Shown here piece after piece: positions 25,376 through 32,451 of a DNA stretch of 40,802 bases. Position 1 is the first letter of the stretch. Each line of letters starts with the position of its first letter. The position numbers and the translations under genes are program-made. Source of the DNA: Candidatus Peregrinibacteria bacterium (GTDB lineage: Bacteria > Patescibacteriota > Gracilibacteria > UBA1369 > LOWO2-01-FULL-3); the NCBI GenBank assembly GCA_016206505.1, contig JACQRJ010000032.1, positions 1-40,802 on the forward strand. The letters run 5' to 3'. The notes beneath the pieces were generated by a model. The model was not told the DNA's origin, did no database searches, and saw nothing but the letters and a program-made list of their open reading frames with translations.

Positions 25376-25678
25376 TTACTTGTTTTTGAGTTTTTTCTTC
25401 CAGCGCATCACGGTGCCGGGGCTTACGTTTACAAAACCGGCGATTTTGCGAATGGGGATTTTTGCTTTGATCATTTCTATGGCTCTATTTATTTGAAGTT
25501 CTTTGCTGCGCAGTCCGTAGCGAAATTCTTTGCTATGGCCGCTCCAGGTTTTGCCGCATTTTCTACAGCGCAGTCGGTTGAAATTTTTGTCATGGATAGC
25601 GATTTCTTCTTCGTTGAATACACCGAAATTTGGACAAAATTTGTTGGGACATGCTTGATTTGAGATGTGTTCGTTCAT
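25376..25678 (-). CDS. Zinc-finger/HTH protein resembling IS1-type InsA / transposase N-terminal
   Basis: ACPNKFCPNFG...NRLRCRKCGKTWSGHSKEFRYGLRSK...AIEMIKAKIPIRKIAGFVNVSPGTVMRWKKKL; no catalytic ORF adjacent. Confidence 0.65.
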   Translation of the reverse strand: MNEHISNQACPNKFCPNFGVFNEEEIAIHDKNFNRLRCRKCGKTWSGHSKEFRYGLRSKELQINRAIEMIKAKIPIRKIAGFVNVSPGTVMRWKKKLKNK

Positions 25679-25976: not shown

Positions 25977-26312
25977 ATGGCTGCAGTATGCCAATCTTGC
26001 GGTATGGACCATGAAAAACCATTTGGTGCGGATTGTGAAGGAGTTGTGTGGACTGAGACCAGAATTGCTGATATGAAATACTTCAAAAGGCGAGATGGCC
26101 TGTGGGTTTTGGCTAGAAAAAGAGGAGTTTTTGGTGACGTGGATTGTATGACATATCGCTTTGGGGGTATATTTTTTTTGGTAGTTGGGGAAGAGGATGT
26201 TGGGCGATTGTTGGATGTGAATGGAGTTGAGCTTATTGTAGTCAAGGATATTCGTGATCGTGTTTTGGTGACAAGTGCGATAGATGAGGTATCTCCGCAT
26301 AAGAAGCGGTAG
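25977..26312 (+). CDS. Small protein with N-terminal CxxCGM motif
   Basis: MAAVCQSCGMDHEKPFGADCEGVVWTETRIADMKYFKRRDGLWVLARKRG...; leader and N-terminus nearly identical to the 21811 ORF. Confidence 0.65.
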   Translation: MAAVCQSCGMDHEKPFGADCEGVVWTETRIADMKYFKRRDGLWVLARKRGVFGDVDCMTYRFGGIFFLVVGEEDVGRLLDVNGVELIVVKDIRDRVLVTSAIDEVSPHKKR

Positions 26313-26331: not shown

Positions 26332-26360
26332 TTGAAAAAAGCTCTTGGAAATGCTATAAT
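26332..26360 (+). promoter_or_regulatory. Near-consensus sigma70-like promoter TTGAAA-N17-TATAAT (extended TGCTATAAT)
   Basis: TTGAAA 26332-26337, TATAAT 26355-26360, spacer 17 bp, 23 nt before ATG 26384. Confidence 0.75.
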
Positions 26361-26383
26361 TAAGGGATTTTGGTTGTGCATAA

Positions 26384-26683
26384 ATGACTGAAATGAAAAC
26401 AAAAATAAAAAAAATGATAAGGAAATCTATTTTTCTTGATGAGTACCGGAAAAAAGCGCTTCTGACGATTGTTGATGATCTATCGTTATCAGATAGAGAG
26501 GCTATTTGCGTCCTTTTGAATTCAGAGGAGGATATTATGCGCAGGGTTTTGACCCGGATTGTAGAGCACGATGGCAGTAAAAAGCTGGAGGGGATTTTTA
26601 AAAGCACCAAAGGTTTATTTACCAAAGCTTCGAATGTCACCAGGCGCAAGTGGCTGCAGGAGAAAGCTGGGTGGAAAATGTAG
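26384..26683 (+). CDS. Hypothetical protein (99 aa), first gene of giant-protein operon
   Basis: MTEMKTKIKKMIRKSIFLDEYRKKALLTIVDDLSLSDREAICVLLNSEEDI...; follows strong promoter, 16 nt from next gene. Confidence 0.65.
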   Translation: MTEMKTKIKKMIRKSIFLDEYRKKALLTIVDDLSLSDREAICVLLNSEEDIMRRVLTRIVEHDGSKKLEGIFKSTKGLFTKASNVTRRKWLQEKAGWKM

Positions 26684-26699
26684 CATTTACGTTTAAAAA

Positions 26700-29600
26700 A
26701 TGACTTCGTTTGAAAGGCAAAAAGTAGGCGATGAAATAAAAAGGGTGGGACAGGTTGTTCGTGAAACCCCTCTTGAAGCTGCCAGGAAACAGGAGATAGT
26801 TGATGTTTATTTGAAAAGAACGCAGGATCTTTTGGATTTGGTCGATTCTCTTGATGCGAATGATCCTTTGAGGCAAACGGTTCTTCGTTATTTGCTTGAT
26901 AATCTTGCCAGGCTTGATAAAGACGCTTTGATCAAGGAGCTGGATGTTTATCGAGAGAGAATTGATCAATTTTATCGCGAAGTTTTGGCAAGAAAAGAAA
27001 AAGTGTCGGGTTGGAGGAGTGGTTTTCAAAAAAATCTGAATCAGGATTTTGTTGCTGTTTTTGGCGTTGAAATCCCCGGTGATGTAAGAGATAAGCTTTA
27101 TGTTATGCCGGAAAAAGGTACTGAAGCTTTCAGATACGCAATGGGGCAACTGATACGTGCAGGGAAAAATACCGTGCATGGGAAGGAAATATTTGGTAGG
27201 CATTGGTCAATGTTTAGGGAGGCGCTGGATTTTGCCGTTGCCGGTAAATTTGATCAGGCTGCAATTATAATCAATAAATTGATTATAATTGTTTTGGATT
27301 CAGGGAAAGCGAAAGAGCATGAAGCCGGTCAGGAAAATCTAAAATTAAGGGCAAGAGAGGTTTTAGCTCTAAAAAAACAGGGAATTTCGAAAGCTTACGG
27401 TGAATTTTTGAAATTGAAAGAACCTTTGGATTTTGAAATTACTGCTTATCTGCATGCCAAAGATATTCCAAAGTTTGCGAAACTGACTGCCGAAAGAATG
27501 TTTAAAATCCGGTCATTACAGCTTAGTCAGGCCAGGATGGTGCAAAAGGTTTTTATTGCTCGTGATGCGTATTTTAACGAGGCGCCTGCCGAACTTACGG
27601 CAAATGAAAAATATGATTTGTTTTGTGATGGAGTTGGATTGCCGAAAACATTTACCATAAGAGATTTTCGTGTTGTGGGGCCGGAGGGTGAGATTGATGA
27701 AAGGAGTAAGCAATCTTATGTGCCTGGCACTGTTTTAGATAATAATCTGGAGATTCCTCTGGATTTACATTCTTCGTTTTATAAACGATTGTTTGAAAAG
27801 CTGGAATATAATCAACTGTATGCCTCCAAGGAGGCCTTTTTACGTACTCATGATCCGAAGTATGAGAAAAGCGCGCGCAAGTTTTTTGAAGTGGAAGAAA
27901 ATGGTGGCGTTAAGACCGCTGATTGTTTGCGAAAGCAGGTTATCGCAGGTGCCGATATTGCGCCGGATGTAAAACGGCGGGTTGAAAAAGCAATGAAGTC
28001 AAAGATGGATAAGACAGTTAAAGACTTTTCAAAGTTGCAGAGTGATCTGGCGAAAGCCGACCCTTATGTAATTCACGACAAATCGCGTGAATTTTATCTT
28101 GCGCTTTCCAGCGAAAAGAAAGATGGAGTTTTGGAATTGGCAAAGTTGATTGATCCGAGATTGGCTGCGGATAATCCCGGAAATAAGGCGATATTGGATC
28201 TTTATGAGAATTTTACAAGTGTTTACATGGCGAGAACGGTTCAGTTGTCACAGGATGCCATGACCAAACATCCGAAAATCCTTGCTGATATCGCTGATGT
28301 AACGAGTTATATGAGCGATGCTTCAGGTTTTATGGAAGCAACGATGAGAACTTTCAAAGACATGCAAAAAACCGGAGAAGGCATTGGAGATCAGTTTCTT
28401 GGAGGGTTGCGTTATCGGGCAACTCAATTGTATCACGATCCTAGACGTGAAAAAATTTATAGCAAGCTTTATGGCAAGCCGTTTTTTGACGCTTATAAAA
28501 CTAAAAGCGCCAAAGATTCGACGGAATTCGATCGTCAGATGGAGATTGTATGGTCGGGTATGTCGAAAATGTATAAAGAAGCTCCACGTTTTGCTTCCGA
28601 TGTTGGACGTCTTTGTTCAAAGGTGATGAAAATGGAAGGCGATCCCAGTACTTTTCTCGATTATCTCGAGAGTATGCGCGGACCGATCATTATTACGGCG
28701 GTTGCGTGTGCGGGTGCAATTGCCGGTGGATATCTGCTTCTACCGCTTTTAGCAAAAGGTGGGGCTTTGGCTTCCGCCGGATTCCTGACAAAACTAGTCG
28801 CCACTTCTATTACCACCGGCGTAACTGCCGGTATCGGAAGTATGGCAGGGGTCGCTTTGGTAACGGGCAGAGTTGATCATATGGATTCTTGGCAGAAAAA
28901 TCTGCTCACTTTGGGGCAAAGTGTGGGAATGCAGGCTTTGGCGGGAGTTGGAGGCGCCGTTTTGGGCAGAGGGATGGCGTCGCTTGGGAAAGTTATTGCA
29001 AATAAATCTCCTTTTTGGGGTACTAGGGTTACGGCATATGCCAAAAATTATGCCGATGTCATGCTGGCCCGTTCGGTTTCGGTAAGAACCGGCGGTTTTT
29101 TCAGTAGATTCAAAGATTTTTTTGTGCGTTTGGGTGAAGAAACAAGCGAAGAATTGCTTGAAGATATGTTTGAGACCGTCGGTAAGGCTATAAGTGCCGA
29201 TAATCCGGTTTTGGGATTTGTATGCATGCTGATTCCTTCAAGTACAAGGACGGCTCGCGGTGTGTTTTTACAATCAAATGGAAAATTTACCGCAGCTCCG
29301 GGGGTAGATGTTCATGTGACAGAACGCGGTCTTGATATTCAATATGGCAGTATTGATAGTGTACTGGCCCTTTTGCGATCAAAAAAAGCACCTGCACAGT
29401 TGATTGCGTCCCTCGAACAAGGAGGTGAAGTGGATGCGGATTTTGACGGCGTGAGGATCAGAGTAAAGCCCACGCCTGCTGCGTCTGCGTCTGCTGCGCC
29501 TGTTGCGCCTACGGACACTTCACGGGCCCGGGATACGGATGTTGCAAGGAGCGAACCTGAGCCGGGTGACACGGGAGATATTGGGCAGGTTAAAACACTT

Positions 29601-31985
29601 GCTGATACCATAAGGGATAAGGGTCTGAGGTTGGCTGTTTTGGACGTGGTGTCGGATATATGGTCAAATACAAAAGAAGGTTTAGTGAGAGGTGTCCAAA
29701 AATTGGACAAGATATATGAAAAGCTCAAAGCTTCAGGAGCATGGGAACTGCTTGGGAAAATTGCCGACAAAATTGATGAAAAGATTCACCGCTTTCATGA
29801 TGCAACTACCGCTTTTAATTTGATGCTTTTGTTTGCTGCCGCCGGAATTGCCACTATAAGCGGTTTGTTTATTTATCTTTCGACCCGTTACGACAGGGTG
29901 CGAAAGGTTTTGCGTCGTGGTGAGATGGTTATTTTTGGTTCTGATAAAGACTGGGTGATTGAGAATCCCGATGCCCACGGTAGAGTTTTAATTATAAGAT
30001 TACAGCCTATTGGCCGCGAAGACCATGTACAGGTTATAAAGAAAATTGTCAGTCTGCGTGAGCTTTTGAGATATAATCCCGAAATATGGGACAGAACTTA
30101 TGTACAAGATACATCTCAGGGACATGCTCGTAGAGATGTTCGTGTAGATCGCTCCGCCGATAGGTCCCAACGTCGTCACGAAGGGAATTTCAACAATAAA
30201 CTTAATCCTAAACAGATTTATATTTTTTCTGTTAATCGTCCTGTTGTTTTGCTTTTGGCGATAAGGAAATCTCAAAGGGTTAATTTATCCGTTTTGGAGG
30301 ATGGCAGCATAGTTCTTGAGAGTAACGGCAAAAGGCATGTAGTGCGTGTCGGTGAGGAGATGCTATTTGGCCGAGCAGATTTTGATTCTAATAATGATCA
30401 TGTTTCTGCTCAACATGTGAGGATCAAAAATTTGGGCGATGGAAAATTTGAGCTTGAGGACTGGAATTCAAAAAACGGTACGAAAGTTGAAAGTGTTGCG
30501 GATGGTAGAGGGGCTGTAGATCAAGGTGCAAGATTGGAAGGTCCTTTTACGGTGAGTCCTTCTTTGGCTGCACTATTTGCCTGGCTGGATTCTCAGGGTA
30601 CGACATATAGCGGTATGCCGGTTGAAAAAATCAAGGCGAACATAATCGCTTATATACAGGGAAATGGCAGTATTGCTCCGGATGGTATTCCCCGCATGGG
30701 CGACCTCAGGCAAAAAGCTGTTGATATTTTGACTGAATATCAGAGAGATGCTGTTCAGTCGCATCTGCAGAGATCCAAGGTGACGTATGATGTTTCAAAT
30801 ACGGTATCGCGTGTGGAGGATGCAAATTCGGCTGAAATCGAAGATACAATATCAAGATGGTTGGGAGCTAAATCTGCCGATACATCACATGGAGTGATTG
30901 TTGATGATGTGTTGGCGAATAATTTTAGAAGAGGACGTCCTCAAAAATTTGAGATTCGATTTAGAAACGGTACTACTGTGAAATTAATATTTCCTGCTCG
31001 TTGTGGAGGAGAGATGGCTCGTATACAGAGCTATGTTGCTGCAGCCGAACAATGGATCCAATTGCAATTTGGACAGTATGGTGTAAAACCAAGACAGAAT
31101 CTGACTATTTTGTTAATGGACGATGTGCCCGGCCATGGTAAAAGTGTTCGCGGTCATGCGGGTAGGGATAGTATTATCATGAGGGCGGATTCGATAGGTA
31201 CCCAGAGATTTTATGAAACTTATTTTCATGAAAGAACTCATTCTATTTTGGGAGCTCATAACATGTGGGCTCATGATGGCGGTGTTGTTGAAGGAATAGC
31301 CAATTATATGGCTGCAGATGGTGTGAAATCTTTGGGGTTTGTAAATCCTGAGGTTATGAAGATTTCCGGAAGGCGTGGTCGCGTGGCTGATGCAGTTCTG
31401 GATAATGTACGTAGTGGCATGTCATATTTCCAAGCTTTGAAACTCTATTTTGAGCAATTTCATAACAAAACTGATTATGATTTGAATTATGAATATGGTC
31501 AGGCTTTTACGGCAGCATTTATAGAGCATTTTCATGGCAATATTGCTGTGTTTCTGGAACTTTATGCGGCGTTGGGAAAAAGTGAATTCAGAAGTGGTGG
31601 ACGCCCGGTAAATGAAATGTATGCCGGAGCGATGCGTGCTATAGGCTTATCCAGTGATGATATCACCTCTATTCTTCATGAAACTGCCGGTAAATTGATG
31701 TTGAGAGCGCATAAAGGGCAAGAGCTTTTTGATATGATAATCAGCCAGAGTCCCAGTGAAATACATGCGATTTTGGATCAGCAGAGTCTTGCTACAATAT
31801 TTGGTCTTGATAGTCCGACTTTGGCCGAACTGGAGGCTCATGTTGAGGATGCGAAAAGGTATGTGCATGGAAGGCGGGCGGGACGTGCAAGCATTCAGGC
31901 TTTTATTCAAATTTTGGATGTTAAGCTTGGTGAAATAAAAAGTAGTCGGGGTATGGGACTGCGTACTCAAATGCGTTACGAATAA
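26700..31985 (+). CDS. Giant multidomain protein: helical N-terminus, membrane segments, FHA domain, HExxH metallopeptidase-like C-terminus
   Basis: Uninterrupted 1761-codon ORF. FHA VVRVGEEMLFGRADFDSNNDHVSAQHVRIKNLGDGKFELEDWNSKNGTKVE (about 30270-30495); YFHERTHSILGAHNMW...VVEGIANYM (HERTH codons 31227-31241); TM GPIIITAVACAGAIAGGYLLLPLLAK and FNLMLLFAAAGIATISGLFIYL. Confidence 0.9.
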   Translation: MTSFERQKVGDEIKRVGQVVRETPLEAARKQEIVDVYLKRTQDLLDLVDSLDANDPLRQTVLRYLLDNLARLDKDALIKELDVYRERIDQFYREVLARKEKVSGWRSGFQKNLNQDFVAVFGVEIPGDVRDKLYVMPEKGTEAFRYAMGQLIRAGKNTVHGKEIFGRHWSMFREALDFAVAGKFDQAAIIINKLIIIVLDSGKAKEHEAGQENLKLRAREVLALKKQGISKAYGEFLKLKEPLDFEITAYLHAKDIPKFAKLTAERMFKIRSLQLSQARMVQKVFIARDAYFNEAPAELTANEKYDLFCDGVGLPKTFTIRDFRVVGPEGEIDERSKQSYVPGTVLDNNLEIPLDLHSSFYKRLFEKLEYNQLYASKEAFLRTHDPKYEKSARKFFEVEENGGVKTADCLRKQVIAGADIAPDVKRRVEKAMKSKMDKTVKDFSKLQSDLAKADPYVIHDKSREFYLALSSEKKDGVLELAKLIDPRLAADNPGNKAILDLYENFTSVYMARTVQLSQDAMTKHPKILADIADVTSYMSDASGFMEATMRTFKDMQKTGEGIGDQFLGGLRYRATQLYHDPRREKIYSKLYGKPFFDAYKTKSAKDSTEFDRQMEIVWSGMSKMYKEAPRFASDVGRLCSKVMKMEGDPSTFLDYLESMRGPIIITAVACAGAIAGGYLLLPLLAKGGALASAGFLTKLVATSITTGVTAGIGSMAGVALVTGRVDHMDSWQKNLLTLGQSVGMQALAGVGGAVLGRGMASLGKVIANKSPFWGTRVTAYAKNYADVMLARSVSVRTGGFFSRFKDFFVRLGEETSEELLEDMFETVGKAISADNPVLGFVCMLIPSSTRTARGVFLQSNGKFTAAPGVDVHVTERGLDIQYGSIDSVLALLRSKKAPAQLIASLEQGGEVDADFDGVRIRVKPTPAASASAAPVAPTDTSRARDTDVARSEPEPGDTGDIGQVKTLADTIRDKGLRLAVLDVVSDIWSNTKEGLVRGVQKLDKIYEKLKASGAWELLGKIADKIDEKIHRFHDATTAFNLMLLFAAAGIATISGLFIYLSTRYDRVRKVLRRGEMVIFGSDKDWVIENPDAHGRVLIIRLQPIGREDHVQVIKKIVSLRELLRYNPEIWDRTYVQDTSQGHARRDVRVDRSADRSQRRHEGNFNNKLNPKQIYIFSVNRPVVLLLAIRKSQRVNLSVLEDGSIVLESNGKRHVVRVGEEMLFGRADFDSNNDHVSAQHVRIKNLGDGKFELEDWNSKNGTKVESVADGRGAVDQGARLEGPFTVSPSLAALFAWLDSQGTTYSGMPVEKIKANIIAYIQGNGSIAPDGIPRMGDLRQKAVDILTEYQRDAVQSHLQRSKVTYDVSNTVSRVEDANSAEIEDTISRWLGAKSADTSHGVIVDDVLANNFRRGRPQKFEIRFRNGTTVKLIFPARCGGEMARIQSYVAAAEQWIQLQFGQYGVKPRQNLTILLMDDVPGHGKSVRGHAGRDSIIMRADSIGTQRFYETYFHERTHSILGAHNMWAHDGGVVEGIANYMAADGVKSLGFVNPEVMKISGRRGRVADAVLDNVRSGMSYFQALKLYFEQFHNKTDYDLNYEYGQAFTAAFIEHFHGNIAVFLELYAALGKSEFRSGGRPVNEMYAGAMRAIGLSSDDITSILHETAGKLMLRAHKGQELFDMIISQSPSEIHAILDQQSLATIFGLDSPTLAELEAHVEDAKRYVHGRRAGRASIQAFIQILDVKLGEIKSSRGMGLRTQMRYE
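27262..27291. repeat. Perfect inverted repeat, 14-bp arms with 2-nt centre, inside the giant ORF
   Basis: CAATTATAATCAAT-AA-ATTGATTATAATTG. Confidence 0.9.
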
Positions 31986-32001
31986 TTTAACTAAATTTTT
32001 T

Positions 32002-32451
32002 ATGACAAGAGCGGACTGTGGTGAAGTATTCGAACCTTTGAAGGCGGCTGTGGATCCGACATATCTTTTCAGTCATGTCGATGCTGCACGTGCTTTTGCG
32101 GATGAAGCTTTGGATTTGAAGCGGCCTGATTTTGTTCAGGCTTTAAAGATTAAAGGTGTGCTTAAGGAGCGGGTCGATTTTCGATTGCTTTTGCAGGCGC
32201 TTGACTGTGATCGAGCTTGTCGTGATGAGGTTTTGTTTTATCTGAGCAGGGTTAGTGTGCATGAACTTGAAGGGCAGGTTATTGAGTTTATAAACATCGA
32301 ATTAGAGCGTGATGGGGAGCCTGATGCGGCTATTTACTGGATGATTCGGGCATTGGTTTGTATGAATACTAAAACTGCAAGATTTTTTCTTGACGGATTG
32401 AGGAATCATCCAAAGATTAGGGGAGATGAGGTGCTTGCTGCGCTTGTTTGA
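32002..32451 (+). CDS. Hypothetical alpha-helical protein (149 aa), probably co-transcribed with giant gene
   Basis: 16 nt downstream of giant ORF, same strand; MTRADCGEVFEPLKAAVDPTYLFSHVDAARAFADEALDLKRPDFVQALKIKGVLKERVDF... Confidence 0.65.
   Translation: MTRADCGEVFEPLKAAVDPTYLFSHVDAARAFADEALDLKRPDFVQALKIKGVLKERVDFRLLLQALDCDRACRDEVLFYLSRVSVHELEGQVIEFINIELERDGEPDAAIYWMIRALVCMNTKTARFFLDGLRNHPKIRGDEVLAALV

What the first reader, a model, noticed from the sequence alone, without database searches (positions are those of the whole stretch)
26332..32451. Giant FHA + metallopeptidase membrane protein in a three-gene operon
Seen directly: a near-consensus promoter (TTGAAA-N17-TATAAT) precedes a 99-aa ORF, a 1761-aa ORF and a 149-aa ORF with 16-nt gaps. 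The giant product combines an about 650-aa helical N-terminus, a Gly/Ala-rich hydrophobic block, a second TM helix, a clear FHA domain (phosphothreonine-binding family) and a C-terminal HERTH...EGIANYM gluzincin-like motif. Neither flanking ORF matches a family I recognise. Inference: a membrane-associated, phospho-regulated protease machine; the hydrophobic block followed by EETSEELLEDMFE is loosely reminiscent of large secreted or phage-like proteins. This is the strongest candidate for an undescribed system in the window.
Basis: partly seen in the sequence, partly recalled or inferred. Interest (0 to 1): 0.75.

Follow-up and report, generated by a model that had tools for sequence, protein, structure and literature searches.

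The report
Polymorphic giant membrane hydrolases in Gracilibacteria
The window holds one copy of an apparently undescribed three-gene module, spread through the Gracilibacteria/Peregrinibacteria branch of ultra-small bacteria, in which a small helper gene precedes a giant membrane protein whose enzyme end is swapped between species together with a small matching partner gene, as in polymorphic toxin systems.

Summary
In detail: promoter, 99-aa ORF1, 1761-aa giant and 149-aa ORF3 at the stated coordinates, with an intact FHA domain and a HERTH…EGIANYM peptidase site. AlphaFold plus Foldseek place the C-terminal third in the M1-type gluzincin fold, although fold confidence is moderate. The genome is a Peregrinibacteria-type Patescibacterium of about 1.15 Mb. 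Related giants occur in 37 of 353 genomes of its class and in no viral, phage or plasmid collection searched. ORF1 homologues lie directly upstream of 20 of 24 giants, often with a 4-nt overlap. The giants share an N-terminal/hydrophobic core, while their C-terminal halves are exchanged: gluzincin, calpain, HD, metallophosphatase, GGDEF, cNMP-binding and other types. Two pairs of C-termini from unrelated backbones carry homologous ORF3s, which is the logic of polymorphic effector–immunity loci. FHA is not a conserved part and no Ser/Thr kinase was found in the 84%-complete genome, so 'phospho-regulated' is weak. Best reading: a polymorphic giant effector module (ORF1 adaptor, membrane-inserting carrier with swappable hydrolase, ORF3 cognate regulator or immunity protein). 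Secretion, toxicity and immunity are inferred, not shown. An intracellular membrane-anchored signalling module is the main rival.

The parts
26332..26360 (+). sigma70-like promoter TTGAAA-N17-TATAAT
   Evidence: exact consensus spacing, position fits; not significant by count alone
26384..26683 (+). ORF1, 99-aa helical small protein; member of a class-wide Gracilibacteria small-protein family that precedes giant genes
   Evidence: leave-one-out HMM E 1.3e-9
26700..31985 (+). giant ORF, 1761 aa
26700..28679 (+). all-helical N-terminal region (aa 1-660), no signal peptide apparent
28203..29579 (+). conserved core of the giant family (helical segment, hydrophobic block, acidic motif)
   Evidence: HMM A1
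28680..29009 (+). Gly/Ala-rich hydrophobic block (about aa 661-770)
   Evidence: AF2 low confidence here
29142..29240 (+). conserved acidic motif after the block, EETSEELLEDMFETVGKAISADNPVLGF in the window (family: ETKEE..EEG.E..G.aIAPD.P.LGF)
29802..29888 (+). single hydrophobic (TM) segment aa 1035-1063
30297..30494 (+). FHA domain with consensus pThr-pocket residues (GR aa 1224, S aa 1236, NGT aa 1259)
   Evidence: not conserved in other peptidase-type homologues
30543..31964 (+). gluzincin (M1-like) metallopeptidase domain plus helical C-terminus, aa 1282-1755
31227..31241 (+). HERTH zinc-binding motif (aa 1510-1514), invariant in all three homologues
31290..31310 (+). EGIANYM third-ligand motif (aa 1531-1537)
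32002..32451 (+). ORF3, 149 aa; cognate of the metallopeptidase-type C-terminus (homologue directly behind the same C-terminus in G017)

Best explanation
The locus is one copy of a Gracilibacteria-wide polymorphic effector module. Shown: (1) ORF1, a small helical protein, is encoded directly upstream of the giant and often translationally coupled to it. (2) The giants share a helical N-terminus plus a Gly/Ala-rich hydrophobic core. (3) Their C-terminal hydrolase halves are exchanged between backbones and lineages. (4) In two cross-backbone pairs a homologous ORF3 goes with the same C-terminus. Inferred: ORF1 is a chaperone or adaptor for the hydrophobic giant; the core inserts into or crosses a membrane; here the C-terminal zinc metallopeptidase is the payload that cleaves proteins of another cell (host, prey or competitor); ORF3 binds and holds the cognate peptidase in check in the producer, as immunity or inhibitor. 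The FHA domain is an optional targeting or regulatory insert.
For: Related giants in 37 of 353 class genomes. ORF1 directly upstream in 20 of 24 core-positive giants with upstream DNA, gaps -35 to +30 nt, often -4; leave-one-out HMM finds the window ORF1 at E 1.3e-9 and 16 of 17 rows below 1e-4; ORF1 hits outside the training set (G000 contig 5, G045, G027, G257, G249, G001 contig 9) turned out to precede giant or giant-like genes. Module swapping by segment BLAST: window core nearest G006 (34%) but window C-terminus nearest G017 (39%); G017 core nearest G022/G007a (48%); G007a C-terminus nearest G042 (36%); G060 core = G053 (55%) but C-terminus = G025/G002 (46%); G083 core = G042 (64%) but C-terminus = G025. 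ORF3 goes with C-terminal type: window/G017 (E 1e-28), G042/G007a (8e-19, different families), and a G009 paralogue pair. C-terminal types by Pfam: calpain, FHA, metallophos, HD, cNMP-binding, GGDEF. The window's type is M1-like by fold: top 50 PDB hits all M1 aminopeptidases. C-terminal diversity by recombination with an adjacent small cognate gene is how polymorphic toxin loci are described in PMC3482391.
Against: No signal peptide and no recognised delivery apparatus: only FtsK-like hits, no EssC; no PF03135 VirB4 hit in this genome or its 12 same-family relatives. Several C-terminal modules (GGDEF, cNMP, FHA) are regulatory rather than toxic. Many giants have no ORF3, and G013a has the same peptidase without one. 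The giants sit in housekeeping neighbourhoods (miaB, alaS, eno). The Foldseek matches have modest E-values (0.01-0.17) and low TM-scores. No activity, toxicity or secretion evidence.
Confidence: 0.42

Rival explanations
1. An intracellular, membrane-anchored signalling or stress/defence module: the giant core is a sensor or scaffold at the producer's own membrane, the swappable C-terminus is the output enzyme (peptidase, HD, metallophosphatase, GGDEF) or ligand sensor (FHA, cNMP), and ORF3 is a dedicated regulator.
For: FHA with intact consensus residues, GGDEF, two cNMP-binding domains and HD domains are typical of intracellular signalling; no signal peptides; a single strong TM segment with basic residues on its C-side suggests a cytoplasmic C-terminus; not every locus has ORF3.
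Against: No nucleotide-binding sensor domain was found in any giant; no PADLOC family beyond one weak hit; not in defence islands; no PF00069 kinase in this genome; extreme C-terminal exchange with a co-travelling cognate gene is more typical of conflict systems; a second module of the same genome (G000 contig 5) ends in a Cys-rich CKADSDCPGDEICVDGRC tail and has a peptidoglycan-binding-like motif, which suggests an extracytoplasmic site.
Confidence: 0.3
2. A large surface or cell-wall ectoenzyme used to attach to hosts or degrade host proteins, ORF1 and ORF3 being folding helpers; variation reflects host range rather than effector-immunity conflict.
For: Peregrinibacteria and Absconditabacteria are reported to have very large, variable exported or membrane proteins (PMC4736985, PMC8080830, PMC11573180); PG-binding-like half motifs in several relatives.
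Against: No signal peptide, no adhesion repeats or cell-wall anchor in the window giant; FHA, GGDEF and cNMP domains make little sense outside a cell; the reported large proteins mostly have signal peptides or adhesion domains.
Confidence: 0.18
3. An ordinary lineage-specific peptidase that happens to have small neighbours; no system.
For: The exact metallopeptidase type is in only 3 of 353 class genomes.
Against: ORF1 conservation, ORF3 conservation with the peptidase type and documented module exchange.
Confidence: 0.06

Closest known systems
Polymorphic toxin systems (Zhang et al. 2012, PMC3482391)
   Same: Conserved N-terminal carrier with highly diverse C-terminal enzymes exchanged by recombination; adjacent small gene that goes with the C-terminal type in some pairs; HExxH metallopeptidases are among known toxin domains; immunity genes may be lacking when targets are distant.
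   Different: No RHS/FilH repeats, LXG/WXG, PAAR, pre-toxin or other known trafficking domain; many C-termini are signalling-type (GGDEF, cNMP, FHA); an upstream ~100-aa partner of a Gracilibacteria-specific family; toxicity untested.
LXG toxins of type VIIb secretion with Lap adaptors (recalled, not tested beyond EssC)
   Same: Layout of small helical gene(s), large helical N-terminal protein, small cognate gene.
   Different: No EssC homologue above cut-off in 21 genomes, no WXG/LXG family match, giants several times larger, central hydrophobic block.
M1 family gluzincin aminopeptidases (ERAP1, IRAP, APN)
   Same: Fold of aa ~1286-1750, HExxH helix followed by an E-G-x-A-x-Y helix.
   Different: No detectable sequence similarity to Pfam M1 or PDB chains, HExxH-x16-E spacing rather than x18, no M1 N-terminal domain; about 9-15% identity in the fold alignment.
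Giant membrane proteins of Vampirococcus and very large exported proteins of Peribacteria (PMC8080830, PMC4736985)
   Same: Same class-level lineage, similar sizes, membrane association, strain variation.
   Different: Those are described with adhesion/WD40/PKD/Cys-rich domains and mostly signal peptides; no ORF1-giant-ORF3 module or C-terminal exchange is described in the passages read.

Membership tests
Polymorphic toxin systems | Conserved N-terminal/central part with recombining, highly diverse C-terminal enzymatic domains | tested here: met
   segment BLAST discordance; Pfam domain types
Polymorphic toxin systems | Adjacent small immunity gene cognate to the C-terminal domain | tested here: inconclusive
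   ORF3 goes with the C-terminus in window/G017, G042/G007a and the G009 paralogues, but G013a and several others lack ORF3, and G001 has an unrelated one; inhibition not testable
Polymorphic toxin systems | Recognised trafficking/secretion module | tested here: not met
   No known trafficking domain in Pfam/NCBIfam; no EssC; no PF03135 VirB4 hit in own genome
Polymorphic toxin systems | Toxic C-terminus | not testable with these tools
   Needs expression in a laboratory strain
Gluzincin metallopeptidase (clan MA) | HExxH plus downstream Glu on a following helix | tested here: met
   HERTH and EGIA(N/V)YM invariant in three homologues; helices in AF2
Gluzincin metallopeptidase (clan MA) | Thermolysin-like/M1-type catalytic fold | tested here: inconclusive
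   Foldseek: top 50 PDB hits all M1 enzymes, probability 0.85-1.0, but E 0.01-0.17 and TM about 0.2 over the whole model
Peptidase family M1 | Sequence membership, HExxH-x18-E | tested here: not met
   No M1 hit in Pfam or by PDB sequence search; spacing is 16
FHA phosphothreonine-binding domain | Conserved R, S, N pocket residues | tested here: met
   GR at aa 1224, S at aa 1236, NGT at aa 1259
FHA phosphothreonine-binding domain | Partner Ser/Thr kinase in the genome | tested here: not met
   PF00069: none in G000 (84% complete), present in 10 of 21 genomes searched
Type VIIb secretion / LXG | EssC ATPase | tested here: not met
   Only FtsK-like partial hits, none over cut-off
Phage structural/ejection proteins | Match to phage families or viral contigs | tested here: not met

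The most novel reading that the evidence does not exclude
A previously unrecognised contact- or secretion-dependent effector system of Gracilibacteria/Peregrinibacteria, with its own adaptor family (ORF1), its own membrane-translocating carrier (helical N-terminus plus Gly/Ala hydrophobic core) and interchangeable hydrolase payloads with cognate antagonists, used on host or prey cells.
Probability: 0.33. Interest if true: 0.85.

Novelty: new variant of a known kind. Interest (0 to 1): 0.62.

Why it matters
How episymbiotic and predatory Patescibacteria act on their host cells is largely unknown, and Peregrinibacteria are enriched in uncharacterised huge proteins (PMC11573180). If the effector reading holds, this gives a class-wide, recognisable marker (ORF1 directly before a giant gene) that lists candidate effectors and antagonists in many genomes and makes host interaction testable. 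Even under the signalling reading it is a new modular giant-protein family with exchangeable outputs.

Tried and rejected
Phage or mobile origin: no hits in viral contigs with the peptidase or core profiles, none in phages or plasmids, PHROGs only noise, viral fold search without significant hits. Type VII secretion: rejected, no EssC. T4SS: VirB4 not detected by PF03135 in this genome or its same-family relatives; inconclusive because Patescibacterial T4SS proteins are divergent (PMC12102498). Anti-phage defence: PADLOC weak SIR2 hit only. Pfam weak hits for ORF1 (DUF3388, Mononeg_RNA_pol) and ORF3 (TPR_16) are below cut-off and were discarded. N-terminal fold search gave only generic helical bundles. 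PDB sequence searches with ORF1, core and other C-terminal profiles gave nothing useful. A genome-collection search with the single giant found nothing; with the peptidase alignment it named G017 and G013. ORF3 of G001 was tested against the G042/G007a type and is not homologous at this depth.
Full report
Observation. The promoter, the three ORFs, their 16-nt gaps, the FHA domain and the HERTH…EGIANYM motif are all at the coordinates given. The promoter matches consensus exactly, but a promoter-like string by itself is no more frequent than chance. Pfam and NCBIfam recognise only the FHA domain. The next gene, hutI, is a conventional imidazolonepropionase.

Organism. The window is one contig of a 1.15-Mb, 84%-complete genome. 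The two nearest carriers of the same peptidase that could be named are Candidatus Peregrinibacteria bacterium RIFCSPLOWO2_01_FULL_39_12 (G017) and Candidatus Gracilibacteria isolate STF1_85 (G013). Both belong to the window's family. One family of the same class (f25) has in-frame TGA codons inside homologous genes, as expected for the Gracilibacteria/Absconditabacteria code. The window genome itself reads TGA as stop.

Homologues. The giant has relatives in 15 of 99 close genomes. An HMM of its core (aa ~487-960) hits 37 of 353 genomes of the class. In an evenly drawn sample of the phylum it hits only genomes of the own class (6 of 287). The matches lie in open frames of up to 3079 aa, mostly over 1500 aa. 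Nothing was found in viral contigs, phages or plasmids.

ORF1. A ~100-aa helical gene lies directly before the giant in 20 of 24 core-positive giants with upstream DNA (the ORF1 of G034 is weak). Gaps are -35 to +30 nt and often the 4-nt ATGA overlap. The small proteins are homologous. A profile built without the window copy finds it at E 1.3e-9, and 16 of 17 rows are found below 1e-4 when left out; the exception is G034 at 0.28. ORF1-type hits outside the training set then led to further ORF1-giant pairs. One is a second module in the window's own genome: contig 5, next to miaB, with a 1147-aa protein. The ORF1 family also has a near-universal solitary paralogue with the motif ESMNDEERQYW…LPIMTxEQ, beside greA in several genomes.

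C-terminal exchange. The last third to half of the giants is not orthologous between relatives. Segment BLAST shows strong discordance. The window core is closest to G006 (34%), which carries calpain plus FHA, while the window C-terminus is closest to G017 (39%). The G017 core is closest to G022 and G007a (48%). The G007a C-terminus is closest to that of G042 (36%), a member of another family with a different core. G060 shares 55% core identity with G053 but 46% C-terminal identity with G025/G002. G083 shares 64% core identity with G042, but its C-terminus is like G025/G012. Pfam types found among C-termini are calpain (G006, G009a), FHA (window, G006, G009a), metallophosphatase (G013b, G015), HD (G080; weak in G042 and G091), two cNMP-binding domains (G252) and GGDEF (G045). 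The gene behind the G008 giant is an ADP-ribosylglycohydrolase with HEAT repeats. By eye only, and not confirmed by a profile: HELQH-type zincins (alignment A9, G009b), a caspase-like H-G/C pair (G001 contig 9), a nucleotidyltransferase-like motif (G302), an ADP-ribosyltransferase-like motif (G080) and a metallophosphatase-like motif (G034). The weak PNP_UDP match of G008 is below cut-off.

ORF3. A short gene follows many, not all, giants. ORF3 goes with the C-terminal type: window and G017 (E 1e-28), G042 and G007a (8e-19, across families), and the two G009 paralogues. The f19 group and G053/G081 agree too but are close relatives throughout. Exceptions are G013a (peptidase, no ORF3) and G001 (related C-terminus, unrelated ORF3). 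G017's gene is split by a contig end: C51 carries ORF1 and the N-terminus, C53 the C-terminus and ORF3. The synteny eno…ORF1-giant / giant-ORF3-miaB-…alaS supports that they are one locus.

Structure. For aa 1121-1761 with three sequences, AF2 gives pLDDT around 75-85 over most of the peptidase part. Foldseek's 50 best PDB matches are all M1 gluzincin aminopeptidases, with probability mostly above 0.9 but E-values of 0.01-0.17 and low TM-scores. With the invariant HERTH and EGIA(N/V)YM motifs, a gluzincin peptidase is well supported, but membership of family M1 is not (no sequence match, spacing 16). The N-terminal model is a long helical array up to about aa 640, with the hydrophobic block unresolved and only generic helical matches.

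FHA and phosphorylation. The pocket residues are intact. However, the domain is absent from G017, where SH3-like repeats shared with G015 take its place, and was not detected in G013a. No PF00069 kinase was found in the incomplete own genome, although 10 of 21 genomes searched have one. FHA is best seen as one more exchangeable module.

Mechanism. The best-supported reading is a polymorphic effector-type module: ORF1 as adaptor or chaperone, a membrane-inserting carrier, a swappable hydrolase and a cognate ORF3 that restrains it. Polymorphic toxin loci are described in just these terms, and their immunity genes may be missing when targets are distant (PMC3482391). The steps of secretion, membrane crossing, target and immunity are inferred. 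The main rival, an intracellular membrane-anchored signalling module, draws strength from GGDEF, cNMP and FHA modules and from the missing secretion signals. No recognised delivery machine was found, although Patescibacteria are reported to have a divergent T4SS (PMC12102498).

Novelty. No description of this module was found in the library searched. Giant membrane or exported proteins are known from the same lineage but are described with other domains (PMC8080830, PMC4736985), and huge proteins of Peregrinibacteria are listed as uncharacterised (PMC11573180). I file it as a new variant of a known kind: it works like polymorphic systems, but membership fails on the trafficking criterion and is untested for toxicity.

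Noticed in passing
L116:8458-12248 (G000 contig 5): Second ORF1-giant module of the window's own genome, next to miaB: 116-aa ORF1 plus a 1147-aa protein with a peptidoglycan-binding-like half motif (DGKVGPETM), Pro/Glu-rich linkers and a Cys-rich C-terminal tail; no hydrophobic core seen by eye.
   Followed up: partly
L126:7631-8032, L118:9719-10126, L120:9329-9739: Near-universal solitary paralogue of ORF1 in Gracilibacteria (304 of 341 class genomes have an ORF1-family hit), motif ESMNDEERQYW, beside greA in several genomes; function unknown.
   Followed up: partly
L019, L025, L066, L068, L069, L030, L080, L123, L125 (first ~45 aa of the giants): Recurring N-terminal motif [KR]x[LF]V[FY]F (e.g. 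KRLVFF, SKLVFF, RKFVYF) in about nine giants without signal peptides; possible targeting signal.
   Followed up: no
L030:8247-10028, L031:7611-9353: Stand-alone 580-593-aa proteins homologous to the calpain-FHA C-termini, next to a tyrosine-recombinase-like gene; possible orphan cassettes.
   Followed up: no
L022:11901-14033: Gene directly behind the G008 giant encodes HEAT repeats plus ADP-ribosylglycohydrolase, possibly an antagonist of a C-terminal activity; unproven.
   Followed up: no
window 25376-25678 (-): 100-aa protein with zinc-ribbon-like and helix-turn-helix parts resembling the N-terminal part of IS1-family transposases, standing alone.
   Followed up: no
window 25977-26312 (+): 111-aa ORF ending about 20 nt before the promoter, no family match, possible Zn-binding N-terminus (CQSCGMDHEKPFGADC).
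   Followed up: no
L073, L077 (G142, G136): Core homologues in class members with in-frame TGA codons (25 and 3 TGA), i.e. the recoded Gracilibacteria/Absconditabacteria lineage also has the family.
   Followed up: no
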